Below are positions 336 to 15,357 of a stretch of DNA of 64,000 bases, in pieces. A program made the position numbers and the translations under genes. The stretch comes from Phylloscopus collybita (lineage: Eukaryota; Chordata; Aves; Passeriformes; Phylloscopidae). Location of the stretch: contig JAJNNQ010000130.1 in the NCBI GenBank assembly GCA_027886175.1, positions 16,075,501 through 16,139,500 of the forward strand, read 5' to 3'. Position 1 is the stretch's first letter. Every line of letters begins with the position of its first letter. The notes beneath the pieces are model-generated. The model saw nothing but the letters and a program-made list of their open reading frames with translations, was not told the origin of the DNA and searched no databases.

Positions 336-647
336 TGTAGTCATGGTTTGTGCTGTGATGTTTTGGTTTCTCTGAAACTTTTTCCCAGGCACTGTTCTGT
401 CAACAAGAGACATGTTTTCCTAACAGTATCCTATGTTGGCATTCCTTTTCCTAGGAGGGACCTTTTCTTGATGTCCCTCTGACTTGACCGATGTAGTTGA
501 AGAAGTTTGTCTTTCTTCCACCCCTTTGGGTGGTTCTTTGTGAAGTAGTATAAAGGGAAGAAATTCCCAGGTAATAAAGATTGATTGGAGTAATTTCAGC
601 CTTCTGACCTCGGGAGTCCATGTCATTGTTAATCTTTAACAGTGTCA
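336..647 (+). repeat. 5' LTR-A (U3-R-U5)
   Basis: The LTR opens TGTAGTCATGG and probably ends at the CA at 646-647, two bases before the primer site. Bases 336-605 match 13030-13299 with 5 mismatches by eye (about 98% identity) and no gaps. A TATA box lies at 549-554 and a poly(A) signal AATAAA at 573-578, so transcription would start near 578 and R would be only about 25 bases. Such a short R is also seen in avian alpharetroviruses. U5 would be about 42 bases (606-647) and is missing from the right copy. Confidence 0.88.
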
Positions 648-649
648 TC

Positions 650-668
650 TGGTGGACACCAACGTGAT
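650..668 (+). other. Primer binding site, tRNA-Trp-like
   Basis: The stretch closely resembles the complement of the tRNA-Trp 3' end used by avian alpharetroviruses, with one inserted base and two substitutions. It lies two bases (tc) after the LTR-A end, the usual position. LTR-B has the same tc spacer before its own primer site. Confidence 0.7.
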
Positions 669-2330
669 TGCAGCCACAGGAACAAGATAAAACTGTACCT
701 TTGTCTATTTAAAGAAAAAAGGGTTTTTGGTAAAAAACCAGCCCGCGAGCTTTGCCAGTTCGTTTTCCCTCTGTTAAGGAGACGAAATTTTGGCAAAATG
801 ATATTTCCTCTGCTAGATCCAGAAGATGATCTGGTCCTGGAGCTCTGGGTAAATTTCTTGGAGCAAAAAGAGGCGAAAATCTCCAGATAACAATTTTACA
901 ACTCTTTATCTCTGGGGAAAAGACACGGCATTTTTCCACATGCACGGGACTCACTGTCAAAGACATTGTGGCATTCTCTGGGAGATAGTCTGCATGAGAC
1001 TCTATACTCTGGTGATGCAGACGTGGCGAATTTAATAATAACCTGGAAGAGATTTGTCACGGTGCTCAAAAGTTCTGGAAGGAGTTCACTTTCCAGTTCA
1101 AACCCAAGTTCTGCAGTTTCTGAAAATGGAGACAGCGCTCCAAGCGATCTGGAGTCAGACGCAGGAATGGAAGACGGAAACCTTGTGGACAGACACAGCA
1201 AAGGAGCTGAGCCAGACAGTGAACCTAGCCGCGGATCAGAATCACCCCCACCCTCCCAAGACACCGTGTTCGGTTCACTTTCCGCTTCTTCCCGCAGTTT
1301 CGACCTTTGGGGAGGGGTTTGGAGCCCCCCAAAGGGTGTGGCACTGTGGTGCGGATGGCCAGCGGGAGCAGGATGGGCTCAGGACCCCTCCTGACCCCGC
1401 CCCACAGGCGCTGTGTCCTGCGGTGCCTGCGAGCCCATGTGGAGGCAGAGAACAGCCCATCCCCCATGTGTTTGTGGCGGTGGGGGGTGATGCACAGCAC
1501 CGCTGGCGGAGTCAGATTTGCAGGGATCGGTCACCATGAAGTGTCCGCACTGCAGTGTGTCTATGCGGTACCCTTTGGGCAATGCCGATGTCGTGGTAAC
1601 TGCCCCGGTTGGTGGTGGCGCTGTGCCCCCACCACAACTCACCCCTGCCATCAGGGGGGCAGGTGGGCCCTCTCCTGGCTCCTCACTGCCCACTGCGCCC
1701 ATGCAGCCGGTGGAAGTGTCAGCGCCTGCGCAGCCAGCGGTAGCATTAGCGCACGCGCAGTCGGCGGAAACACCAGCAGCCGTGGTTTTGGTGGATTTGT
1801 TCACCGATTTTGTTCCAGTGGCGGGTCAGCCTGCTCCCCTCCGCCCGATGTGAGCAGCGTCTTCCATGCACCCTCGCACCAAGGCTCCACCATCTCTTCC
1901 TGCAGCACTGGGCGGGAGTGAGGTCACAGCTCAGTCAGTCGCCCCCTCCCCTGCCCCGTCCGTGTTCGCGATGCCAGGGAATGGTGTCGGGGCAGTGCAA
2001 GCCCCGGCTCTCCCTGTGTCTGCTCTTCTGGCTCTGGGCGGGGCTGGTGCTGAATCTTTATCGTTTCCAGCAAACCCTCCCATGCCAGCTCCCCGCCAGG
2101 TGCAGGGTGTGGGCGGCACCGGATCTCCTGCAGTGCCCCTTCCCCCTGCGTCGGTTTCAGATGCGTCTGCTGTTTCTGTGTCGCAGGCACAGCGGGTTCC
2201 ACAGTGGCTGGTGCGGCTCCAGTGGGTGCACACCCCCCACCCTCTAGTGAGTCTGGGACTGCCATGTCTACAGCCCCCCTGGTATTCACAATTGGGTCAG
2301 GGGGCAACACAGCTGCCATGACACCTGCAA
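669..2330 (+). pseudogene. gag: gag 5' part (matrix-like and proline-rich region), broken
   Basis: This is the start of the gag polyprotein, which would form the inner coat of the particle. The frame opened near 642 runs through a basic segment (about 700-890), a TAA at 888-890, then a Ser/Glu-rich stretch to a TGA at 1392-1394. The frame starting at 1054 is also open to 1539, so a frameshift is likely. From 1518 a Pro/Ala/Val-rich region in the first frame runs to 2321, with one TGA at 1851. The region from 1280 to 2330 is much richer in G+C and CpG than what follows. There is no capsid N-terminal domain: the next recognisable part, at about 2400, is the second half of capsid. Position after LTR-A and its primer site assigns this part to provirus A. 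Matrix identity is by position only; no motif proves it. Confidence 0.55.
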
Positions 2331-2394
2331 TTGCTTGAAGTAGGGGGCCCCAAGTTGGTGCTCTCTCTTCAGCCAATCACTGGACCCTTCCCCC

Positions 2395-3081
2395 ATGCCA
2401 GGTCACGGTCCCTCCCGGGACCCTAAGCGTTTCTGGGATGAAGTGAAATCCAAAGCTTTGGAAATGGGGCACTGGGACGTTGTAGAGCGTTTTGTGGGGA
2501 GCCCAGTTGTGGCAGAGTGTCTACGCCAACAGTGCAATTCAGCCACAGAAGAAATCCTGCGTTCCCTGCCAGCAAGGTCAAGCATTGCAACCATGATCAA
2601 ACATATCACAAGCGAAGAATACTTAGCACCAATGCAAGCAGCAGTTCGCACTGCAATAGCCAGTGTAATAACATGTGTCCAGTGTAGCCAAGCAAGTCAC
2701 ATTGCAGCAAATTGTTCCAAAGCAAAAAGCCCACCACCAGTGCCCCCCTCACCACAAAACCGACCCAAAAGACCATGCTGAGCCTGTAGCAAAAGAAAGC
2801 ACCTAGCCAAAAAATGCCAGAAAACCAATTTTCAGAAAAAAGAGAAAGAGAAGAGGCAGCAGGGCCGCACACAGCCTTCTCCCACTTGGAATGCGAAGCG
2901 GCCCAACTTTGTCAACCCACCCCCCACCTGGGGAGTGAGACAACTCAACTATGAAAATCCATGGGGTGGCGAGCATCTCCCGAACCCACTGCCTCCACAA
3001 GAGATGACCAACCTTAAAGCTGATCAAGTAACCCAGCCAAACTGCTACGCAAGTGCCACCCCCTGGAACCAAAACCCCTGA
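2395..3081 (+). pseudogene. gag: gag 3' part of provirus B: capsid C-terminal domain and nucleocapsid
   Basis: The open frame 2395-2781 starts in a major-homology-like segment (GPSRDPKRFWDEV) and continues with the helical capsid C-terminal domain. The first zinc knuckle follows, CVQCSQASHIAANC (CX2CX4HX4C). A TGA at 2779-2781 falls inside a second knuckle, whose C, H and C ligands continue in the same frame up to about 2818. The frame then runs through a Lys/Pro/Asn-rich tail to a TGA at 3079-3081. The capsid N-terminal half (about 150 residues) is absent, so the piece begins in mid-domain. Nucleocapsid would bind and package viral RNA. The frame continues into protease with no shift. Confidence 0.8.
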
Positions 3082-3474
3082 GTGGCCCTGGCCGTGAAAT
3101 GCACCAACAGCCCCCCAATAATCTGGGGAATCTGCACTCCTTATAATCCTTCTGCACCCCACTGGAAACTTTTAAAAAATACTAACTGTGCTATTAGTCT
3201 CCCCTTTCTCTTAGATACTAGAGCAGACATTTCAGTGATTCCGGAGGCGAAATGACCCCCAAACTGGGAGCTAGAAGAAGCCCCCACCGTGGGTGGAGTT
3301 GGGAGTTTGTCTCAAGCTCGAAAAAGCACTCAGCTGATCGTAATAACACTCTTCACTGAAGAAGAGCGTGAGAGATCCATCGCTCTATACCCATTTGTCA
3401 TGTCAGGGGTCCCACCTTTGCTAGAGAGAGATGCCCTATCCCTACTGAAAGTCAGGGTGACAAATTTACCCTGA
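3082..3474 (+). pseudogene. pro: Retroviral aspartic protease of provirus B, active site mutated
   Basis: In the same frame as gag, the segment LLDTRADISVIPE (about 3208-3246) is the protease active-site loop. The essential DTG triad reads DTR: the third codon, 3220-3222, is AGA where the family has a glycine codon. A TGA at 3253-3255 follows Lys and precedes Pro-Pro, where relatives carry tryptophan. The rest is open to a TGA at 3472-3474. The enzyme would have cut gag and gag-pol during maturation; with DTR it should be dead. The changes fit G-to-A mutation. The frame ends in a slippery heptamer that would pass ribosomes into pol. Confidence 0.8.
3462..3468 (+). promoter_or_regulatory. Programmed -1 frameshift site between pro and pol
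   Basis: The heptamer A AAT TTA is correctly phased in the protease frame (codons AAT 3463-3465, TTA 3466-3468), two codons before the TGA at 3472. The -1 frame is the pol frame that starts here. The same heptamer is the known alpharetroviral slippery site. I did not work out the downstream RNA structure. Confidence 0.75.
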
Positions 3475-5204
3475 GGGCCACTGCTGTACACCCGTGCCTG
3501 CTGATCAAGTTGACATGAAAATCTTCCGACCCGGTGTGGGTGGAGCAGTGGCCCTTGCCTGAGCCTTGAATGACTGCCCTCCTTGAATTAGTTGGCCGCG
3601 AATTACAGCAAAGTCACATAGAACCCTCCACTAGCCCGTAGAACACCCCAGTTTTTGTAACCCCCAAGCAGTCTGGCGAAGGTTTTCGCCTCATTCATGA
3701 CCTGCGTGAGGTGAACAAAAAGATCCAACCCATAAGCCCTGTTCAGACACAGCTGCCCGCGAACTCAATGATTCCAAAAGAGCAGCCTTGCACTGTGTTA
3801 GGTATCAAAGACTGTTTCTTTTTTATACCCCTGCATGAACAAGACAAAGAGCAGTTTGCCTTTTCCATTGTGTTTCCAAATAGCCAGCACCCCAATTTAC
3901 AGTTTCAGTGACGTGTTCTTCCCCAAGGAATAGTTAATTAGCCAACCATCTGCCAAATCACTGTAGACCAAGCGCTACTGCCAGTCCGACACGGTGATCA
4001 ACCTGCGACCATCGTTCAGTACATGGATGACATCCTAATTGCAGCACCGTCGACGGACCAGGTAGACTGTCTGGTAACAACAATCTCACAGGCTCTGGAA
4101 GCAAAGGGGTTTGAAATTGCTAGCACAAAAATAAAGAAAGGGCCTTGCATGACTTTCCTAGGGACGCGGATCACGAATTCCTATGTAACACCTCCACAAA
4201 TAAAGATCCGTAGAGACATAAAAACTCTTCATGACATGCAGCAGTTGGTGAGATGTCTGCAATGGCTCCGTAGTGTTGTGCTAATCCCTCCCCAAGTTAT
4301 GTCTCCACTGCATGATCTTTTAAAAGAGAAACACCCCTGGGAGCAGAAGGTCCTGACTCCAGAGGCAATAGACTCCCTCAGTTTCATTGAGCGGCAGGTA
4401 TCCTCAGAAACGCTTTCCAGGTGGAACCCAGATGAACCACTCGACCTGTATGTACATTACATGAAAGGGGGAGGAGTGGGAGCACTAGCCCAAGGATCTC
4501 CCGAGAAAGCCAAACCCGTACAATTAGTGGTCCTGAGGAAACCATCACGTACATTTTCTCCGAGAGCAGAATGTGTTAGTAACCTTATAATGAGAGGCAA
4601 AAAGCTTGCTCTGAGTCTCCTGGGCATTAAACCTACAAACATCTATTTGCCCTTTCGCAAGCAGCTTCCCGCATTATCAGTAGCAATGTCAGAATGTTTA
4701 GCTTTAGCCCTTCTTAGATTTGCGGGGGAAATTCGGTATGCTGCCAAACCCCTATAGACTCAGCTGTTAGCAATAGTAGATATTGACCTTCCACAAAAGG
4801 TCATAGATCGGCCTCTTCCGACACTGACAGTGTTCACAAATGCATCCTCAGCAGCCTCGACTGCAGCAGCAGTGTGGCAGACCAAAGAACAACAGCACTG
4901 TGTCAAGATGACCGACCATGTGCTCTCTGTTCAACAGCTCAAAGCAGCAGCTCTGGTGTTATGCTGCAGAGTGTTCACAACAGAGCATCTCAACATCATC
5001 ACTGACTTGCTGTTTGTTGCCAAGCTCTGTCTAGCCATGTCAGGACCAGGTGTATCGATGTCCCCGACAGCTGTCATGCTAGAAAAAGCACTTTCTTCCC
5101 GAAAAAGAACCATTTCAATCATCCACGTCAACAGCCACAATCCTGTCGAAGAGTTTTTTCAGATTAGTAATGACAAGGCAGATGCAGCAGCAAAAGGACT
5201 GTAG
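3475..5204 (+). pseudogene. pol: Reverse transcriptase and RNase H of provirus B, multiple stop codons
   Basis: A single frame, without indels that I can see, carries the RT fingers and palm: SP-stop-NTPVF at about 3633-3656, LREVNKK near 3705, VLGIKDCFFFIPLH near 3797-3838, VLPQG near 3915, and the catalytic YMDD at 4020-4031, which is intact. The connection and RNase H follow; the RNase H opening aspartate is Asn (codon 4839-4841, FTNAS). In-frame stops lie at 3516, 3567, 3639, 3909, 3939, 4755 and 5202. Those at 3516, 3639 and 3909 sit at highly conserved Trp positions; 4755 and 5202 probably do. The codon 3930-3932 after VLPQG is ATA where relatives have Met. The enzyme would have copied viral RNA into DNA. 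The pattern of stops without frameshifts is unusual for simple ageing. Confidence 0.85.
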
Positions 5205-5993
5205 ACGCTCAAAGAAGCCCGTCAGCTGCATGAAACTCTCCATATCGGAGCCAAAGCACTGGCAAAGAAGTGCAGAATCTCAGCAGCTGATGCAAAACAC
5301 GTCATAGCAACCTGTCCTCATTGCCAAAAGGCGCCTCTGTGGTCCAGTGGAGTCAATCCTAGAGGCCTCAAACCCTCCGAAATATAGCAGACGAATTTCA
5401 CACTTTGCCAGGTGCTGAAGCCTCAAGCCTGGCTCACAGTGACTGTAGATACCTACAGTGGAGTGATAGTAGCCACGCAACATCTCAAAGCCAACTCTAA
5501 AGCGACCATTCAGCACTGGCTGACAGCCATGGCGTGGCTCAGAATCCCAAGCTAAATCAAAACAGACAATGGGCCAAATTTCACTTCCCAATCAGTTCAA
5601 AATTTTGCTTCTAAATGGGGTATCACTTTAGTACATGGCATTCCATACAACACTACAGGGCAGGCCATTGTTAAGAGAGCAAATCAGACTTTGAAAACCA
5701 AAATAGAAGTGATAGCCAGAGCGGAAAGCTTCGCTAATGCCGTTCCGCCAGGAGATTAAGCGCGTTTGTTAGCTACTGCATTGTTAGCACTGAATCAGTT
5801 TCCCAGAGGAGATGAGGCCAAAAGCCCTGGGCTGCTCCAGCATTAGAGGAGGGTCCACCAGTTGTAGTCAAGAAGGAATTGGGAGAATGAGAGTCAAGGT
5901 AGAAATTAGTTTTAGCAGGCCGAGGGTATGCCGCAGTTAAAAAACAAGACAAAATCAAATGGTGTCCACTCAAATCTATTAAGCCATAATTGC
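5205..5993 (+). pseudogene. pol: Integrase of provirus B, two catalytic residues lost
   Basis: The zinc-binding N-terminus (Arg-Gln-Leu-His near 5219 to CPHCQK near 5312) continues in the RT frame. The core follows: TAG at 5385-5387 replaces the Trp of the WQTD motif, and the next acidic residue is Asn (5394-5396). The middle catalytic Asp in KTDNGP is kept. Exactly 35 residues later the expected Glu is Lys (5673-5675), so the D,D35E triad reads N,D,K. TAA codons at 5553 and 5757 also interrupt the frame. Between about 5760 and 5880 the reading frame shifts; the C-terminal DNA-binding part (AGRGYAAVKK near 5920) continues in another frame with TGA 5888 and TAG 5900 at probable Trp sites, ending at TAA near 5991. 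It would have joined viral DNA to the host genome; this copy cannot be active. Confidence 0.85.
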
Positions 5994-6173
5994 AGAATAA
6001 AACTAATGAAAACTGTGAGTTTTTATCCACAAGGTCAAATTTTGGGGCGCCCTCGTGATGCGTACGTTCCAGTTCCAGAAGAAGACAGTAGACCAGAAGA
6101 CGTTCCAGCAGCACCAGAAGTACCCCCGTCACCAAAGCCCAAACAACACTGACAATTTTGTGTCATTTTAATA

Positions 6174-7885
6174 ATGAGTTTAGTAGTCCAGGTGCAAGCA
6201 GAACCCAAGCACCATCCTTACCAGCCGGTGAAGTGGGTTTTTCGAGACCTTTCAGAGAACAGAATCATAAAAGAAATCGTGACCGCAGGTGCCCCTAAAT
6301 TCATGGTAACAATAGAAGACTTGTTTCCTGGCCAGAAAACTTATAGTGTCATGTCCTCCTCGAGGCCACCTATTGCCCTCCATCCAGTTTGTTGAGAAAC
6401 TTATTCGTGTCCCAGTGTGTATCCAGAGAAGAGCTACTGCAATTATCCAAAGTATTATTTTTGTAGGTATTGGAGATGTGAAACGATTGTCTTGAATAGT
6501 AGTCATTTGTAGAAGCCGGAGAAGGGAGATGAGTTTTTACAAGCCAAGTGGGGACCGAGAGGTTGTGCACTTCCAGACTTTGCTAGCAATAGAAGAGCGC
6601 GCACATTTGGTAATTGCAGTCATTTTGAAGTAGATATATTGCGTCTGGAGAACCCTAGTTAGATGGCGAGGAAGAAGTGGTCAGTGTTGATCCATCACCC
6701 TTTTCAAGATCCAGGCATGTTAGTGCAAATTATCAAAATTGTATCTCAAATTCCCAAAGTGATTGGGTCCAACAAAATTTTAAGAGAAGACAGGCCCGAG
6801 ACCACTAGCTCAGTCGATGCATTGTCATCTTGGCAAGAACCACAAATAGCCCCTTATGACGTGCTTTACCACATGTTGAACATAACGTTTCTGTCGCTGA
6901 ACCAAACCAATTCCAGTTTTTCAAGTTCTTGTTAGCTGTGCTTCGATGCACAACCACCCTTTTATGAAAGAATTGCTTTTGACGCTTTTTTCACTTATTC
7001 AGACACTAGTAACCCAGTCCGGTGCAGGTGGGATTCACCACAGAGAAGAATCACCTTGAGCCATGTGATAAGTCAAAGACTGTGTTTTGACAATGAAGTT
7101 CTGGCAAAGCGAAGCACCCGCAGCTGCAAAACTTTTGTCAGCATCAATAAACGTTGCGAATGGGCTATCCCGTTTGCGTCGGGTACTTGGGCTTGCCACT
7201 GAACAGGTGTGAGTCCTTGTGTGCTTCTCTCATCTTTTGATGTCTCTAACGATTTCTGTGTGCAAGTTGTTATCATTCCCAGGATTTTGTACCACTCTGA
7301 AGAAGAAATGGATCACATGATGGACAACTTCATCGATTCTGCACCATCTCTTCGGCTCCAAAAAAGAGCATTCATAGCAGGTGCAACAGTAGCAATGCTA
7401 CTCGGTCTGAGAGCGACTGGTGCCGCCACAGGTGTTTCTGCCCTTGCAACCCAGCATCACGGTTTGCAAGAGCTCCAAATGGCAATTGACGAAGACCTGC
7501 AGAGAATTGAGAAATCCATATCCTTTCTAGAAAAATCACTGTATTCTCTTTCTGAAGTTGTTTTGCAAAACCGACGAGGTCTTAATCTTTTGCTCATGCA
7601 ACAAAGAGGTCTTTGTGCAACCCTGGGAGAAGAGTGTTGTTTTTATGCTGATCACACAGGTCACGTTCGGGACACGATGGCAGAACTGAGACAGAGACTT
7701 GCCCGCAGAAGGGAAGAAAGAGAAGCTAGCAAGAGTGGTTCAAGTCCCTGTTCGATCGGTCACCGTGGCTTGTCACTCTGATGTCCACGTTGATTGGACC
7801 GATTGTGATGATTCTCCTTGTGTTGATTTTTGGGCCTTGTGTACTGAATAAGTTAGTACAATTTGCTAGAAATCGCTTAGAGTGA
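6174..7885 (+). pseudogene. env: env of provirus B, gamma-type surface and transmembrane glycoprotein, broken
   Basis: The surface subunit starts near 6174, resembling type D and gamma-like avian Env (PYQPVKWV). After frameshifts, the segment near 6458-6475 shows Cys and Trp with two Arg codons (AGG, AGA) where relatives have Gly. From 6663 to 7781 one frame runs, with stops at 6933 and 7200; the TAG at 6933 lies inside the C-X-L-C isomerase motif where gammaretroviruses have Trp. After a dibasic KR near 7370-7375 come a hydrophobic fusion-peptide-like stretch, a heptad helix, the immunosuppressive-domain-like LQNRRGLNLLL and the CX6CC motif (CATLGEECC, about 7615-7641). The membrane anchor and tail (LVTLMSTLIGPIVMILLV, then to TGA 7883-7885) are in a different frame, shifted near 7730. 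Env would mediate receptor binding and fusion. Its class differs from that of pol. Confidence 0.82.
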
Positions 7886-8106
7886 TTTGACATAATGTTA
7901 GTGCAACGTCAGCAGCTTTTTTAAGTGATTAGAGATAAGTGATAAGTACCTACCAGTTTTAAGAATGTTATAGTTATTTAGTTTGAAGTTGACCAATTTT
8001 GTAGTTTACTAACAATTTAACGATTTAGTTATTTAAGATACTAATTTAAAAAGTTTTGCATTTATAAGTTTTAGCCTGTTTAGTTAATCATAGGGGGGGG
8101 GGGGAA
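7886..8106 (+). other. 3' untranslated region and polypurine tract of provirus B
   Basis: AT-rich noncoding sequence follows env, then a run of twelve G and two A (8093-8106) directly before the TG of LTR-B. This is the normal place for the polypurine tract that primes plus-strand DNA synthesis. A pure G run of this length is prone to slippage, so its length may vary or be an assembly error. Confidence 0.75.
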
Positions 8107-8448
8107 TGTAGCAGCAAGGGACAGGCGCTTCGGAAAATGTCGAGTGTACGAGTAAGTGATAAAGTTAGGCTTTTCTATTGGTAAGCCTGCTGGGTCAGCC
8201 AATCACATATGAAAGATGACCCAAGCAGACAGGTAGAGTTTTAGTAGCAAAAGTTATAAAAACTCTGTGCAAACTTCGAATAAACACCATTTTGCTATCC
8301 ACCACATTAGTGTTCTGTGAGCAATAGACTGAGCGAGCTAAGTGTAGCAGCTGTGCCGCTCTCTCGAACCAAGCCCCACTTTGTGCCATATAAGTAACAG
8401 ACTGGAGAGAGTCCTTCTGGCTCTGCTAGCACTGAAAGGGATGTGATA
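8107..8448 (+). repeat. LTR-B (single copy in the window)
   Basis: The LTR begins TGTAGCAGCAAGG right after a polypurine tract and ends near 8448, two bases (tc) before a tRNA-Phe-like primer site. A TATA box lies at 8255-8260 and AATAAA at 8279-8284, again implying a very short R, followed by a long U5 of about 140 bases. Apart from the first five bases it does not resemble LTR-A. I found no second copy in the window. It therefore has left-hand features of a 3' LTR and right-hand features of a 5' LTR. The exact right end is inferred; the expected terminal CA reads TA. Confidence 0.78.
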
Positions 8449-8450
8449 TC

Positions 8451-8469
8451 GGGTGCCGAGAACCCTGGA
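8451..8469 (+). other. Primer binding site, tRNA-Phe-like
   Basis: GGGTGCCGAGAACCCTGGA matches the complement of the tRNA-Phe 3' end with a first-base change, one inserted G and one further substitution. The two-base spacer from LTR-B is the same as for LTR-A. No leader or matrix follows: within about 20 bases the sequence is in the gag frame just before capsid. Confidence 0.6.
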
Positions 8470-9588
8470 CAGGTATCCTGTCTGTTCCTGTGACATCCAC
8501 AGAGCAGATCCAAACAGATCCCGTCACCTTGCAAGGAGATGTTCAGGCTTTTCCTGTGCTTAGGGGTAATCCTACCACAGGACAGCCTGGCACCCACCAT
8601 GTCTTATCATGGAAAGCTGTAGTAGACCTACAGGATAAGGTGGCCAAGTATGGTCTGGGTTCTCCTGAGATGATGCAGATGATTCGTGTCCTGAATGCGG
8701 ATCTGTTGGCACCATACGATATCAGGCACATCGCTCAGGTGTTGTTCTGGGCTGTTCAGCTTGAGGTGTTCGAGCAAAATTGGGATCAATTGGCTATCAA
8801 GGTGATTGCACAGAATAGTCAATTGGTTGCACAGGACCCCAGGCGTGCAGCTGGAGTGGATGTGTTCACAGGTGTTGGCCAATACACTGACCCTGATCTT
8901 CAGGCTACCTTTCACAGCTTGTGCTGGAGCAGTGCCAGAAAACAGGAATTGCAGCATTGGTGAAAACCATTGAATTAGCTGCTCCAAAACAGAGATTTGT
9001 GACCATAGTCGAGGGGTCAAAAGAGTCATTTTTGGACTTTGTCAAGAAGCTTTCTGCAGCTGTTGAGAAGCAGGTGAATGATGTAGACGTGAAGACACTT
9101 TTGTTCAAACAGCTTGCAAGGAGCAATTCCAATGCGGATTGCAGAAAGCTCATTGAGGCTCTCCCTGGAGATCCTTCTCCAACGGACATGGTCAAAGCAT
9201 GTGCTAATGTAGGCATCACAAAGCACAAGATGGCTGCCTTTGCTACTGTGTTGCAGTCATCCTGGAAAGGCCAAACAGTGGACAGCAGAAACAGGGAAAA
9301 GCACAGGCTGGGAAGAAGCAAGGAAAGCAAAAACACAAAGCAAAAGCTCCCTTGTTTCTCTGTGCTCGGTGTCAGAAGCCAAACCATACTGCAGACATTT
9401 GTACGGCTGCCAATGGTCAGCCTTTGCCAAGTTCGGGAAACAGGACGCGGAGCGCCAAGGAGAAACGTGCACAGACCCCAAGCTTTCCCCAGGTCCCAAC
9501 GCCAATGCAGGCTTGCTTAGCAAGCTTGCAGCCAGCACCTGCGGTTCAGCCGGTGTTGACGTCTGCACAGCTGCAACAGTCATCTTAG
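8470..9588 (+). pseudogene. gag: gag 3' part of provirus A: capsid and nucleocapsid
   Basis: The first frame is open from within the primer site to TGA 8961-8963. It holds the capsid N-terminal domain, beginning around PVLRGN (near 8555) with LSWKAVVDLQDKV and LLAPYDIRHIAQVL. A frameshift near 8900-8925 moves to the frame of 8921-9520, which carries the major homology region (IVEGSKESFLDFVKKL, about 9008-9055) and the C-terminal domain. A second shift near 9260-9280 leads to a basic Lys/Gln stretch and one zinc knuckle, CARCQKPNHTADIC (about 9361-9402), ending at 9588. Matrix and the proline-rich region are missing here, but such a region sits beside LTR-A at 669-2330. Damage is by indels and mixed substitutions, unlike provirus B. 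Confidence 0.82.
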
Positions 9589-9905
9589 ACTCTTGCAAAC
9601 CGCATAAAGTCCCCCTGGATGCCTTTGGACCCTTGGGTGAAGGCAAAAGCACCTTCCTCATGGGGCGGTTAAGTGCTGCCCTGCAGGGTATCATTGTGCA
9701 TCTAGGACTCATTAATGCAGATTATACTGGAAAAATTCATGCAATGGCTTCCACACCCACCCCCCCGTCACTATCCCCGAGAAAACTTGGATTGCTCAAC
9801 TTGTGCCTTTTAAGTCTTCTGTTTCTAGGACTTAGAACCAGTGGCGAGGAGACGGCTGCTTCAGATCTACTGGGCCACCTCAAGTTTACTGGACTGCAGT
9901 CCTGA
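9525..9905 (+). pseudogene. dUTPase-like domain of provirus A
   Basis: The frame of 9240-9905 contains AGVDV (near 9549-9563, motif 1), GRLSAA (near 9664-9681, where the family has a G/P-R-S-S motif 2) and GLINADYTGKI (near 9706-9738, motif 3 including the DYxG core). This order and the place between nucleocapsid and protease match the dUTPase segment of betaretroviral pro. The enzyme would hydrolyse dUTP and limit uracil in viral DNA. The motif 2 change and a frameshift after about 9755 suggest it is inactive. I assign it by motif order only. Confidence 0.65.
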
Positions 9906-10210
9906 CTGACAAACGTCTTGAGATGTGGTGTAGGCTGTACCTCCCTGATTCCACCCCATCAGAGATCCATATTCGAGGTCTGATAGATATGGGGATGGAC
10001 GTGACCATCCTCTCCTTCTCTGCATGGCCTCCGCAGTGGCCTCGGGATCCTGTTCAGTCGTCTATCACAGGATTGGGTGGAACGATGCAATGCTTCATGA
10101 GCCAGCGACCTGTGATGATCACGAACTCAGAGGGACAGTCAGCTGTGGTTCAACCTTATGTCACTGAAACTACTGCTAACCTCTGGGGGCAGGATGTCCT
10201 GGCAGCTTAG
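9906..10210 (+). pseudogene. pro: Protease of provirus A, active-site loop altered
   Basis: The frame of 9923-10210 carries IRGLIDMGMDVTILS (about 9971-10015). The expected DTGAD loop reads DMGMD, with the catalytic Asp kept but Thr and Ala replaced by Met. Changes at ACG/GCG-type codons would fit CpG decay rather than the G-to-A pattern of provirus B. The frame continues to an Asn-Leu-Trp-Gly segment near the end of the fold and stops at TAG 10208-10210. Protease would process gag and gag-pol. Expected to be poorly active or dead. Confidence 0.75.
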
Positions 10211-10329
10211 GGGGTACAAATCAGGACGAATTTTTGATGGGGGCCACTGTGTCGAAGGGCACACCGTGTCTCACGCCTCCTTTACGGTGGCTGGTCGACA
10301 CACCCATCTGGGAAACCCAGTAGCCTCTT

Positions 10330-11830
10330 CCAAAAGAAAAATTGGTTGCCCTTTGGGAGTTGGTCCAGGAGCAATTGGACCAGGGTCATCTTGAGTTTTC
10401 CACCAGTCCGTGGAACACTCCTGTTTTTTGCATCAAAAAGAAATCTGGGAAATGGAGGTTGTTACAAGACTTCCGGAAAGTCAGTGCTGTGATGGAAAGC
10501 ATGGGGACGCTGCAACCTGGTATGCCTTCACCCACCATGCTTCCTAAAGATTGGCCGGTTCTCGTCATTGATCTGAAGGATTGTTTCGTTACAATTCCTT
10601 TGCATCCTGATGACAAACCAAAATTTGCCTTCACAGTGCCAGCAATTAACAGGGCTGAGCCTGTGCAGAGATATCAATGGATGGTTCTGCCGCAAGGCAT
10701 GCAAAATTCTCCTGTCATATTCCAATGGTATGTGGCCCATGCCTTGTCTAGTTCACAGACAATTTCCTGATGCCCGTTTCTATCATTACATGGATGTTAT
10801 CCTGGTGGCAGCATCCACTCAGGATGAGCTGCTGAGGATACACCCTCAGCTGCTCAATGCTTTGCATTCTCATGGGCTCCAGGTGGCTCCAGAAAAGGTT
10901 CAACAGCAACCTCCTTGGAAATATTTGGGGATCAAAATTTTGGAACGAGCGGTCCAACACCAAGAGGTGCAGTTTGTGCGTTCGATTAAGACCCTGAATG
11001 ATGCACAAAAATTGGTAGGTGTCATCATGTGGTTATGTCTATATTTGGGATGACCAAGACACAACTGTCTCCGCTGGCTGATTTGTTAAAGGGAGACTCT
11101 GATCTGAGATCACCTCGCACCTTGACCCCTGAAGCACAAAAAGTGCTGGAGGAGGTTCAGCAAGCTGTTTCTGTTTGCCAAGTTTATCGCATTGATCCTT
11201 CCGTTGATATCACTGTTTTCATTACCACTCCAGATTTACATCCCACTGGTATCATTGGCCAATGGAATGACAAATGGTCTGATTCCTTGCACATTTTGGA
11301 ATGGGTCTTTTTGCCTCATCAGCCACAAAAGACGGCAACCACGCTGTTTGAATTGATCGCTTGCCTGATAGTCAAATGCCGGCTATGGTGTTTGCAATTG
11401 ACAGGAGCAGATCCCGCAAAGATCGTAATCCCGGTAGAGCGGAAAAACTTTGACTGGAGCCTCGCTAACAATGTGTCCCTGCAGAGTGCTCTGGAAAACT
11501 TTTCAGGGCAGATCACTTATCATCTGCCCAGCCATGAGCTACTGAAAGTGTCAAAATTAACTGAATTTTCTTTGCGGCCCAAAAATAGTCCGGAGCCGGT
11601 GCAAGGACCCACTGTCTTTACTGACGGTTCGGGAAGAACAGGAAAAGCCATTGTTACTTGGTGGGATGGATCTGAGTGGCAGGAGCTAAAGGATCGTAAG
11701 GCTGGCTCAGCCCAATTGGTTGAATTGAGAGCTGCTGTCATGGCATTTCAGTGATTTTCCCAGGTTCCTTTCAATCTGGTCACGGATTCTGCCTATGTGG
11801 CAGACATAGCTCAATAATTAGGTTATTCAG
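10330..11830 (+). pseudogene. pol: Reverse transcriptase and RNase H of provirus A, frameshifted
   Basis: The frame of 10342-10770 has [20 protein letters not shown] (about 10399-10461), [10 protein letters not shown] and [15 protein letters not shown], all Trp residues present. A frameshift near 10740 moves to the frame of 10610-11053, where the catalytic YMDD reads YMDV (about 10789-10800; the second Asp is lost by GAT to GTT). A second shift near 11030 leads to 11029-11754, with the thumb and connection and RNase H: acidic residues in FTDGSG (near 11620), LVELRAA (near 11720) and, past a TGA at 11752-11754, VTDSAYV (near 11780) are all present. RT is inactive from the YMDV change; RNase H keeps its acidic residues but is split by a stop. 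Confidence 0.85.
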
Positions 11831-12977
11831 TTTTGAAGGAAGTCAGTAATCCTGCTTTGTTTCATTTGCTGAAAATCTTGTGGTGTGCTATTCAGGCCTG
11901 AGTTCATCCATATTACATTCTGCATGTTAGGAGTCATATCAATTTGCCAGGTTTCATAGTGGAAGGCAACGTGAGGGCTGACAAGTTGGCTAACCCCGCG
12001 TGGGTAGCACCTCAGCCTGACATACTCACGCAAGCCAAGGCATTGCATGAATTCTTTCATCAGAATGCACGTACTTTGCAGAAGCAGTTTCATTTGACAC
12101 CAACTGAGGCTCGTGACATTGTCAATTCTTGTGACGACTGTCACGCACTGGCTGCGCCTCTACCAGCAGGGGTAAACCCCAGAGGCCTCAAGGCCTTGCA
12201 GATTTGGCAGACAGATGTCACCCAAATTGCCGAATTTGGCTGGCTCAAGTATGTGCACGTGTCTGTTGATACCTTTTCTTCTGCTATGTGGGCTTCTGCT
12301 CACACTGGAGAAAAAGCTCGCAATGTCATTGCCCACTGGAGGCCAGCTTTTGTCCTTTTAGGCACACCGTCTACTGTGAAGACCGACAATGGTCCTGCTT
12401 ACACCTCGCAGAAGGTGCAGCAGTTCCTGCAATTGTGGGGTGTGTCACACAAGTTTGGCATTCCACAGTCCCCAACCGGTCAAGCTATTGTAGAACATGC
12501 TTATGGTACTCTGAAGCAGGTTCTTCAAAAACAAAAACAGGGAATGCAGGGTGAATCCCCGCAGAGTTGGTTGGCAAAAGCTTTGTACACCATCAATCGC
12601 CTTACGATGCCACAGAAATCAAATAACCCTGTTATTTTGAACCATCACCTTTCGTTGCTGGGTCCGGTCAGGACACATCAGCCTCGAGCGAAGGTTTGGG
12701 TGCGCATTTTATCACTAAGCAGTGGAAAAGTCCATTCGAGCTTATCGCTTTGGGTTGTGGCTATGTGTGTGTATCCACAGATACTGGGGAATGCTGGGAA
12801 AGTGCAAAGTGCGTTTGTCCTGACCTGCAACCGCAAAGGCAGAATCGGGCCAACAGGCAACTTGAAAACCGTGACCAGAATGAAAGTCATCAAGCGGAGG
12901 AACCTTTGAGTGATGACTCAGATGCAGATGATGCGAGTGATCACTCGGATGGTCTCTCCACAAGCAGACACTGAACA
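11831..12977 (+). pseudogene. pol: Integrase of provirus A, core intact, C-terminus frameshifted
   Basis: An open frame of 321 codons (11944-12909) carries the HHCC zinc domain (HEFFHQN, then CDDCH near 12130), the core with Asp in WQTDVT (near 12210), Asp in KTDNGPAY (near 12380) and Glu 12493-12495 exactly 35 residues later, so D,D35E is complete. Near 12700 the frame shifts: the C-terminal DNA-binding segment (KSPFELIALGCGYVCVS, 12732-12782) continues in the frame of 12696-12974, followed by an acidic Asp/Ser tail. It is the best-preserved retroviral gene here, but it lacks an independent start and its last domain is out of frame. Integrase inserts viral DNA into chromosomes. Confidence 0.85.
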
Positions 12978-13029
12978 CTTTGCATTTTTATTTTATTTTT
13001 CTTTTTTTTTTAAACAGAAGAGGGTGAGA
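12978..13029 (+). other. Short 3' region and polypurine tract of provirus A
   Basis: Only about 50 bases separate the integrase end from LTR-A: a T-rich run and then a purine tract (about 13016-13029, agaagagggtgaga) ending at the TG of the LTR. There is no env and no room for one, so provirus A is env-less, either by origin or by deletion. Confidence 0.75.
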
Positions 13030-13299
13030 TGTAGTCATGGTTCGTGCTGTGATGTTTTGGTTTCTCTGAAACTTTTTCCCAGGCACTGTTCTGTCAACAA
13101 GAGACATGTTTTCCTAACCGTATCCTATGTTTGCATTCCTTTCCCTAGGAGGGACCTTTTCTTGATGTCCCTCTGACTTGACCGATGTAGTTGAAGAAGT
13201 TTGTCTTCCTTCCACCCCTTTGGGTGGTTCTTTGTGAAGTAGTATAAAGGGAAGAAATTCCCAGGTAATAAAGATTGATTGGAGTAATTTCAGCCTTCT
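13030..13299 (+). repeat. 3' LTR-A lacking U5
   Basis: It matches 336-605 over 270 bases with five mismatches that I count by eye (for example T/C at 13043 and A/C in the aaccg segment). It keeps TATA and AATAAA (13267-13272). Similarity stops at 13299, about 27 bases after AATAAA, where R would end. The 42 bases of U5 present at 606-647 are absent and T-rich flank follows. No target-site duplication is visible. Confidence 0.88.
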
Positions 13300-15357
13300 T
13301 TTTTCATTTCATTTTCTGCTTCAAGAGTTTGCTCAAGCACAAATTAGTCAGGGTTGAACTGTATTTTCCAGTACTGACAAATAAATTATTGACTCACTTA
13401 ATAAAGCAGAATTGCACTGACTTACAGATCCATCACACTGGAGAGGGAAAAGATTTCAAATATTTTTAGGAATTTTTTTTTCTTAAACAATCTTTCTACT
13501 TGTAAAAGAAAAAGATCAGCATATTTGGGTTTGTTTTTTTGTTTTTTTTTGTTTTTTTTTTTTTTTTTTTTTTAATTCTTGATTACTTTTTAAGGTGTCT
13601 TTCCCTAGTGCCCAGATTCTGCTGTGCAGGGTGAGAAAGCTGCTGACTGGAGTGGGAAGAGGCTGAATTATAGTTCTCATTCTGCATCAGGGCTACTCTG
13701 TGTTCTGCTTCTTGGCATCCCTGTGAACGTTCTGATTTCATGGTGTCAGTGAACTCTGCAGCTGTCCTTGCTTAATATCCCTCTTTTCCTAAGAGCTAAA
13801 CTTTGTTTAGTAGGAATTGAGCTTTGATTTCTGCCTTTTGTCTTGCTCCTTTTTTTTTTTTTTTTTCAATCTCATGGGTTTGTTTTACTTTTTCACTTAG
13901 TGTCTGTCCTTTTTTGTTTCCCTATTGCTATCCCTGAAGCAACTCCTTGAGTTCCTTGTGATCTTATCTCTTTTATACAGATTAGAAAAACCAGGCAATG
14001 AATTTTGAGAACAAGGTGAAGTAGCCCCCTGTTTTGGAATTTTTATTCCATCAAGTCTGATTATCAGATTACAAACTGCATTTCCAGTCCTTATTTCAGG
14101 CACCTTTGGAAAGACCTTGCCCATTCTACTGGTTACATTAGGCTTGCATGTGTGTATTTTGTTTCTGAATTGACTTTATACTTTGATATTTTATTTCTCA
14201 GGCTGATTGTTGTCATATTTCCATTTTAGTTATTTTTCTCTTTGACTTTACAAATTTCTAATTCCTAGGAAGTGAGGCTTTTCTGTAGCATTCCAGCTGC
14301 ACTGGGAAAGTTGGATGTTTTTGCTTTAAATAACATATATAGATGTCAGCCTTTATTATACAGATGACAGCTAAACTAGGGCTTATAAAAAGGTCCAGTA
14401 ACTTTCTTCTGGCAGTCTGTAAAATACATTCGGTGCAGTGTCTTTTATGTGTGTGTGACAACAAAAATATAATGTTCTTCCGCTTCTTGCCTCTAACACA
14501 TGGTTTCCATAGATACATCTGCTAAACACCCAATTTAGCTATTAATGAGTTCAGTCCATAACTGAAAAATCTTAAAGACCATGCAACCCGAGAATAAACA
14601 GTTGAAAATATTTAGTGTCTCAGTGCGTAAAGTATAAAATATATCCTACTAAGTATCAGTATTAAATATCATATTAAAGTTTCGTCCTTGAATTTTGAAA
14701 GAGCAGATGTGTGGCAAAAACACGCAATTCCCTATGGCTCCAGCAGCTTGGTGGGGTTGTTGTGGCCTCCCTTGGACTGTAGATGGCACCGTTGCTGCAC
14801 ATGAAAGCCGAGCTCTTCCAGTCCCTCCCGAGAGAATTGTTAACCTACAGGCGTTTGGAAGCATGTATTTTGTGGTAGGACCTGGTAAGGGTTTGAATGA
14901 GTTTTTCTTTCCCTAGTATTAGAGAGGAACATGGAGAGAGGTGTTGGATTTTTTTTTTTCTTTGTGAAATAGTGCTTTGGAAAACAGTTGGAGCATGTGA
15001 ATGAATGAGGACCAATGGTACAAACAACCCAGTCAAAATTGGTTTTATTGTATCTCAGATGTTTAATTTTTCATCTAGAAGTCATCTCTTTTGCTTTGCA
15101 AACTTGTTTGCAAAAACAAATAAATACTACTCTTAGGTGTCTCTTGTTTTTGAAGCTGAGCATTTGAAATACAAATTAGTGAATGGATCTATAAAAAAAA
15201 TAATAGAGATCAAGGCTCTCTGAAATCCTTCAGACAAATAATTTCCAGATTCCCCTGCGTGTTCTAAAAAGCCTGTAGCTGTAGGCATACCCCTTTCCAA
15301 ATCTGCGTGTATAGTGGAGGAAAGCCAAAAGGGAAATGGAAAAGAGAGAGAATAAAA
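13300..15357. other. AT-rich noncoding DNA right of the retroviral locus
   Basis: No gene or exon is recognisable. There are T-rich runs at about 13530-13573 and 13850-13866. Open frames are short and lack family features. Confidence 0.5.

What the first reader, a model, noticed from the sequence alone, without database searches (positions are those of the whole stretch)
3082..7202. Provirus B carries a G-to-A hypermutation signature
Seen: pol from 3462 to about 5770 keeps one frame, yet stops fall on Trp positions: 3516 (LT-stop-KS), 3639 (SP-stop-NTP), 3909 (FQ-stop-RVLPQG), 5385 (I-stop-QT), and probably 3253, 4755, 5202, 5888 and 5900; in env, 6933 lies inside C-X-L-C. All are TAG or TGA, one G-to-A step from TGG. 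Other breaks also fit G to A: protease DTG to DTR, RNase H Asp to Asn (4839), integrase Asp to Asn (5394) and Glu to Lys (5673), RT Met to Ile (3930), Gly to Arg twice in env near 6460. Stops at 3567, 3939, 5553 and 5757 are not explained this way. Known: cytidine deaminases acting on minus-strand cDNA cause plus-strand G-to-A; birds lack mammalian APOBEC3, but I recall reports of such editing in songbird retroelements. Inference: the copy was edited at birth.
Basis: partly seen in the sequence, partly recalled or inferred. Interest (0 to 1): 0.85.

Follow-up and report, generated by a model that had tools for sequence, protein, structure and literature searches.

The report
Bird retrovirus copy scarred by deaminase
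A retrovirus copy in what looks like a bird genome carries a dense burst of G-to-A changes of the kind that DNA-editing deaminase enzymes leave while a virus copies itself, which matters because birds lack the mammalian enzymes best known for this pattern.

Summary
Confirmed and strengthened. B is a 5'-truncated class II retrovirus copy at about 2500-8399, inserted into provirus A's gag. Against sibling copies from the same genome (8 in pol, 4 in the 3' part; 4403 sites where they agree), B-specific changes are G>A 121/1044, C>T 44/1011, A>G 18/1210, T>C 13/1138. Outside CpG: 112/994 against 39/961 (p=1.6e-9). The changed G precedes G at 71/231 sites, against 42/729 for other next bases (p=4e-21): the APOBEC3G-like GG context. 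Provirus A, tested on B's right-hand side, shows neither bias. Siblings encode Trp at 15 of 20 stops examined. Of 21 other matching rows, 5 carry the same signature, in three insertions besides B. The host encodes AID, an APOBEC2-like gene and two further APOBEC-like genes near AID. Best explanation: deamination of B's minus-strand cDNA during reverse transcription. Editing of songbird LTR elements is already published, so this is a new member of a known kind; which bird enzyme prefers CC stays open.

The parts
336..13305 (+). Outer provirus A, interrupted by B; 5' LTR from 336, 3' LTR about 13030-13305 cut short
   Evidence: 336-605 matches 13030-13299 with 5 differences in 270; A-family copies at 83-84% in the right-hand part
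2500..8399 (+). Provirus B, 5'-truncated, inserted in A's gag; left edge good to a few bases
   Evidence: 5 of 5 A-family copies are contiguous across the site; junction alignment; a sibling (L067) has a 5' LTR plus about 1.8 kb before the point where B starts
2500..3461 (+). Remains of gag and protease of B, edited
   Evidence: Against one sibling, unpolarised: G>A 52, A>G 9, C>T 10, T>C 9; GG 29/77, other contexts 23/161
3462..5757 (+). pol of B (RT, RNase H, most of integrase) with 10 in-frame stops
   Evidence: Pfam RVT_1, RVT_thumb and Integrase_Zn over cut-off, RNase_H and rve pieces below cut-off; G>A 50/443, C>T 21/515
5758..6170 (+). Integrase end and start of env frame of B
   Evidence: G>A 13/96, C>T 2/79
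6171..7870 (+). env of B (SU and TM)
   Evidence: TLV_coat E=9e-52 for 7203-7778; SU G>A 27/226, C>T 9/200; TM G>A 14/161, C>T 7/141
8107..8399 (+). 3' LTR of B, the only LTR it keeps
   Evidence: Matches the 5' LTR of sibling L067; G>A 15/75, C>T 3/56, GG 10/20

Best explanation
B is a retroviral copy whose minus-strand cDNA was deaminated (C to U) by a host AID/APOBEC-family enzyme with a CC preference during the reverse transcription that made it, before it integrated into provirus A. On the plus strand this reads as G-to-A, mostly where the next base is G, and it turned many Trp codons into stops. Shown: the strand bias, the GG context, its absence from the part of A to the right of B, B's nested position, and the same signature in three other insertions of the family. 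Inferred: cDNA as the target, timing, and the enzyme; one of two APOBEC-like genes near AID is the likeliest editor.
For: G>A 121/1044 against C>T 44/1011; non-CpG 112/994 against 39/961, p=1.6e-9; GG 71/231, GA 19/260, GC 9/215, GT 14/254. At CpG in pol the two are equal, 7/31 and 7/34. Polarised by the 70%-identity family: 32/277 against 10/323, GG 17/61. Seen separately in pol and in the 3' part (GG 44/137 against 24/436). Adjoining A: 127/1127 against 126/1052, no GG excess, p=0.53. Overlap of edited sites between B and the other edited copies is near chance: 6 to 8 observed for 5.8 to 6.9 expected, and 4 for 2.7. Neutral change in B's pol since A's insertion is bounded at about 21 (7 to 50), fewer than the 50 G>A alone. 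Host deaminase genes present.
Against: 5 of 20 stops examined are not Trp. 7 of the 50 pol G>A sites are better read as changes on the siblings' stem, and 11 could not be polarised to either branch. In the 816-base segment compared over all copies B alone is not significant for GG (7/46 against 9/130, p=0.13), and 3922-4151 has no G>A at 38 G sites. The mirror control is slightly raised: CC>CT 17/246 against 20/618 for C after other bases, outside CpG. One sibling (L042) shows 9 G>A to 2 C>T private changes in pol. No enzyme was tested.
Confidence: 0.85

Rival explanations
1. Same mechanism, earlier round: a parent of B, now missing from the assembly or not found, was edited, and B was copied from it with proteins supplied in trans.
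For: B also carries stops not explained by G-to-A (5 of 20), and B-specific changes other than G>A in pol number 44 at 1963 sites, some of which may predate this copy.
Confidence: 0.11
2. Reverse-transcriptase error or nucleotide-pool bias gave the G-to-A excess without a deaminase.
For: Retroviral RT errors are often G-to-A biased (recalled).
Against: The next-base dependence (GG 31%, others 6%), the load in a few copies only (5 of 21 other rows) and balanced private changes in the siblings together (33 G>A, 35 C>T) fit a context-specific enzyme better.
Confidence: 0.02
3. Ordinary decay after integration, with CpG deamination, made the stops.
For: Three of the five non-Trp stops sit where relatives have Gln or Arg, as C-to-T decay would give; CpG sites are decayed in both directions.
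Against: Non-CpG asymmetry, GG context and the symmetric adjoining part of A.
Confidence: 0.01
4. AID-like deamination of the integrated DNA, for example during transcription.
For: The host encodes AID.
Against: It should also reach the other strand and the adjoining DNA; A beside B is symmetric. AID's recalled WRC preference predicts GC or GT, which stay at 23/469.
Confidence: 0.01

Closest known systems
DNA editing of LTR retrotransposons in songbirds (Knisbacher and Levanon 2016; not held; seen through passages of PMC6523648 and PMC6497032)
   Same: Plus-strand G-to-A in LTR elements of birds, strong in zebra finch and more limited in medium ground finch according to PMC6523648
   Different: Here a single dated, nested provirus with an adjoining unedited control and a measured GG preference; whether that paper reports the context in birds I could not see
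APOBEC3G-edited HERV-K proviruses in the human genome (PMC2531183, passages)
   Same: GG-context G-to-A in a minority of copies (two of twenty strongly hypermutated there), without a clear gradient
   Different: The host here is taken to be a bird; A3 proteins are described as exclusive to placental mammals (PMC3880073, abstract passage)
APOBEC1-type editing of retroelements in reptiles and marsupials (PMC3880073 and PMC5399452, passages)
   Same: Non-A3 deaminases of the AID/APOBEC family linked to retroelements; the host here has an APOBEC1-like gene near AID
   Different: The lizard signal was in L1, not in LTR elements; mammalian APOBEC1 prefers TC, that is GA on the plus strand (recalled), not the GG seen here

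Membership tests
APOBEC-type hypermutated provirus | Strand-asymmetric G>A over C>T, CpG removed | tested here: met
   112/994 against 39/961, p=1.6e-9
APOBEC-type hypermutated provirus | Fixed next-base preference of the changed G | tested here: met
   GG 71/231 against 42/729, p=4e-21
APOBEC-type hypermutated provirus | Confined to the element, absent from adjoining DNA | tested here: met
   A, 8421-13030: 127/1127 against 126/1052; A to the left of B not tested
APOBEC-type hypermutated provirus | Edits private to the copy, others of the family clean | tested here: met
   16 of 21 other rows without the GG signature; site overlap with the other edited copies near chance
APOBEC-type hypermutated provirus | Host encodes a candidate cytidine deaminase | tested here: met
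   Six APOBEC_N matches, read as four genes
APOBEC-type hypermutated provirus | The enzyme shown to edit this virus | not testable with these tools
   Needs an assay
AID-type editing | WRC target, i.e. GC or GT on the plus strand (recalled) | tested here: not met
   GC+GT 23/469, close to C>T 44/1011
GA-type editing (mammalian APOBEC1 or A3F-like, recalled) | Excess at GA | tested here: inconclusive
   B: GA 19/260 against GC+GT 23/469, p=0.19; GA 13/48 in the edited C80 copy
APOBEC3 editing proper | Host A3 gene | tested here: inconclusive
   Six APOBEC_N matches only; one diverged gene has APOBEC3G N-terminal domain as best solved match (8e-20) but Pfam ranks other AID/APOBEC models above APOBEC3
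Avian class II ('ERVK') retrovirus with TLV_coat env | Class II pol kin and TLV_coat env | tested here: met
   RVT_1, RVT_thumb, Integrase_Zn and TLV_coat over cut-off; bird 'group K' pol relatives

The most novel reading that the evidence does not exclude
A bird AID/APOBEC paralogue near AID (one of the two extra genes on C24), not an APOBEC3, evolved an APOBEC3G-like CC preference and acts as a restriction factor carried into virions of this env-bearing retrovirus family, independently of the mammalian A3 genes.
Probability: 0.45. Interest if true: 0.75.

Novelty: new member of a known kind. Interest (0 to 1): 0.5.

Why it matters
Editing of songbird retroelements is on record, but I found no paper in the held library that names the responsible enzyme or its sequence preference (searches). 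This locus gives a clean case: an edited provirus inside a provirus that shows no such bias, other edited insertions of the same family, a measured GG preference that speaks against AID-type editing, and two candidate genes. It makes the question of which enzyme edits retroviruses in birds directly testable with an ordinary deaminase assay.

Tried and rejected
CpG or age decay as sole cause: rejected. Comparison with the 70%-identity family alone (G>A 111/509, C>T 88/574, A>G 134/803, T>C 69/543) gave no clear excess because of saturation; replaced by siblings. A protein-level test against relatives at about 25-46% identity was too noisy; redone with sites conserved among up to 161 closer relatives (G>A 20, C>T 2, A>G 4, T>C 1). 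That test has a built-in G>A lean: the control copies L014, L015, L016 and L025 gave 3, 3, 7 and 3 G>A against 2, 0, 1 and 1 C>T, so it is only support. IMG/VR gave one distant locus, not used. That the three edited C58 copies were re-transposed from an edited template was rejected: they share flanking DNA. A monotonic gradient along B was not seen. Rows dropped: 15 sites where B's residue occurs in more than 3% of relatives, sites where siblings disagree, are too few or have gaps, two 90-base fragments and 18 matches at 68-70% were not fetched.
Full report
What is there. The window lies in an unnamed 1.247-Gb genome in 517 contigs. The pol relatives that carry an organism name are birds with one exception seen (an opossum), so the host is taken to be a bird; the species is unknown. 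Provirus A begins with an LTR at 336 and ends with a shortened copy of it at 13030 to about 13305; the two differ at 5 of 270 sites. In 5 of 5 A-family copies (L031-L035) the matches to window 2071-2499 and 8416-13083 lie next to each other, and the junction alignment shows A's gag resuming after the LTR end at 8399. The stretch of about 2500-8399 was therefore inserted into A's gag: provirus B. A sibling has a 5' LTR and about 1.8 kb before the point that matches B's start (L067), so B is 5'-truncated and keeps only its 3' LTR (8107-8399).

The observation. All 14 named stops are present; the pol frame holds ten. The genome search with B's 3942-4757 listed 42 matches, from 40 of 192 candidates scored, so the list is a lower bound: B itself, 21 rows at 88-93%, two 90-base fragments and 18 rows at 68-70%. 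I fetched pol of 8 of the 21, the 3' part of 4 of those 8, the 816-base segment of the other 13, and one 5' region. Siblings carry Trp at 6 of 10 pol stops, at 2 of 2 named integrase-end stops, 4 of 5 env stops and 3 of 3 gag/pro stops: 15 of 20.

The mutation spectrum. At 4403 sites where the siblings compared agree (at least 6 in pol, at least 3 in the 3' part), B differs at 225: G>A 121/1044, C>T 44/1011, A>G 18/1210, T>C 13/1138, transversions 29. Outside CpG, G>A is 112/994 and C>T 39/961 (p=1.6e-9). At CpG in pol the two are equal, 7/31 and 7/34. By next base: GG 71/231, GA 19/260, GC 9/215, GT 14/254 (8 of the 121 had no unanimous next base). The mirror C>T counts outside CpG are CC 17/246, TC 7/215, GC 5/207, AC 8/196, so CC is slightly raised. 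The pattern holds in pol (outside CpG: GG 27/99, GC or GT 7/205) and in the 3' part with the LTR (GG 44/137, others 24/436). Polarised by the four 70%-identity copies, G>A is 32/277, C>T 10/323, GG 17/61; of the 50 pol G>A sites 32 fall on B's branch, 7 on the siblings' stem and 11 are undecided. In gag-pro, against one sibling and unpolarised, G>A is 52, A>G 9, C>T 10, T>C 9.

Controls. The part of A to the right of B (8421-13030, against five copies) is symmetric: G>A 127/1127, C>T 126/1052; GG 39/317 against 88/810, p=0.53. A to the left of B was not tested. In the 70%-identity family, private changes over four copies are G>A 38 and C>T 47. The eight siblings' private changes in pol are G>A 33 and C>T 35, one copy standing at 9 to 2; in the 3' part four copies give G>A 31 and C>T 21. 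At 415 pol sites conserved among relatives, B shows G>A 20, C>T 2, A>G 4, T>C 1, five single-type transversions, 6 ambiguous, 3 multi-step, and 15 set aside.

Recurrence. In the 816-base segment 5 of 21 other rows carry the signature: three on C58 (GG 18/45, 19/43, 19/43), one on C80 (21/43) and one on C49 (9/36). The C58 copies share 39-41 edits and about 800 bases of DNA beyond the LTR, so they are one edited provirus duplicated with its surroundings. Overlap of edited sites with B is near chance: 6 for 5.8-6.1 (C58 copies), 8 for 6.9 (C80), 4 for 2.7 (C49). C80 and C49 share 12 for 7.3 expected, so their independence of each other is less sure. With B this makes at least three, probably four, editing events. 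B itself is lightly edited in this segment (16 G>A; GG 7/46, others 9/130, p=0.13).

Mechanism. Shown: a plus-strand, GG-directed G-to-A excess in B and not in the adjoining part of A. Inferred: deamination of C, mainly in CC, on single-stranded minus-strand cDNA, hence before integration; an enzyme acting on integrated DNA should hit both strands. If A's LTR difference is a fair clock (5 differences only; gene conversion not excluded), neutral change in B's pol since A's insertion is bounded at about 21 substitutions (7 to 50), fewer than the 50 G>A counted in pol. An edited parent not found here remains possible.

The enzyme. PF08210 has six matches in the host, one on C15 and five on C24 within 28 kb. 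The C15 gene is APOBEC2-like (Pfam APOBEC2, 2e-59). One C24 gene reads as AID (best solved matches are AID chains, 1e-53 and 4e-52; Pfam ranks NAD1 first). One is APOBEC1-like (best solved match APOBEC1, 6e-28; Pfam APOBEC4_like 5e-45 and APOBEC1 1e-43). One is diverged (best solved match APOBEC3G N-terminal domain, 8e-20; Pfam SNAD4 1e-33). The last two are the candidates. AID's recalled WRC preference would give GC or GT, which stay at background; mammalian APOBEC1's recalled TC preference would give GA, not significantly raised in B (19/260 against 23/469, p=0.19), though GA is 13/48 in the C80 copy. The pattern is thus APOBEC3G-like, although A3 proteins are described as exclusive to placental mammals (PMC3880073, abstract passage).

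Known or new. Strong editing of zebra finch LTR elements, and a more limited effect in medium ground finch, are credited to Knisbacher and Levanon 2016 in PMC6523648 (passages) and taken up in PMC6497032 (passages). That paper is not held, so I cannot say whether the GG context in birds is already printed. GG traces in human HERV-K, strong in two of twenty copies and without a clear gradient, are the closest parallel I read (PMC2531183, passages). I file this as a new member of a known kind with an open question about the enzyme.

Noticed in passing
window 2500-8399 within 336-13305: B sits inside A's gag and lacks its own 5' LTR and about 1.8 kb of leader and gag; how the 5' end was lost is unexplained.
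   Followed up: partly
window 13030-13305: A's 3' LTR match stops at about 13300, short of the 5' LTR's end; the cause was not sought.
   Followed up: no
C58 copies L056, L057, L059 with flanks L068-L070: One edited provirus is present three times with shared flanks, a duplication of the surrounding DNA.
   Followed up: yes
L072, L073, L074 (C24) and L075 (C15): Host AID/APOBEC genes: an AID gene with two further APOBEC-like genes within 28 kb, and an APOBEC2-like gene elsewhere.
   Followed up: partly
sibling loci, none singled out: Some sibling copies show no stop in the fetched pol piece, so the family was active recently or copies are preserved.
   Followed up: no
window 3922-4151: A stretch of B's pol with no G>A at 38 comparable G sites between edited stretches; chance, or protected during reverse transcription.
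   Followed up: no
G000 contig C59: Many of the 150 best RVT_1 matches lie on contig C59 (18 Mb), which suggests an ERV-rich chromosome.
   Followed up: no
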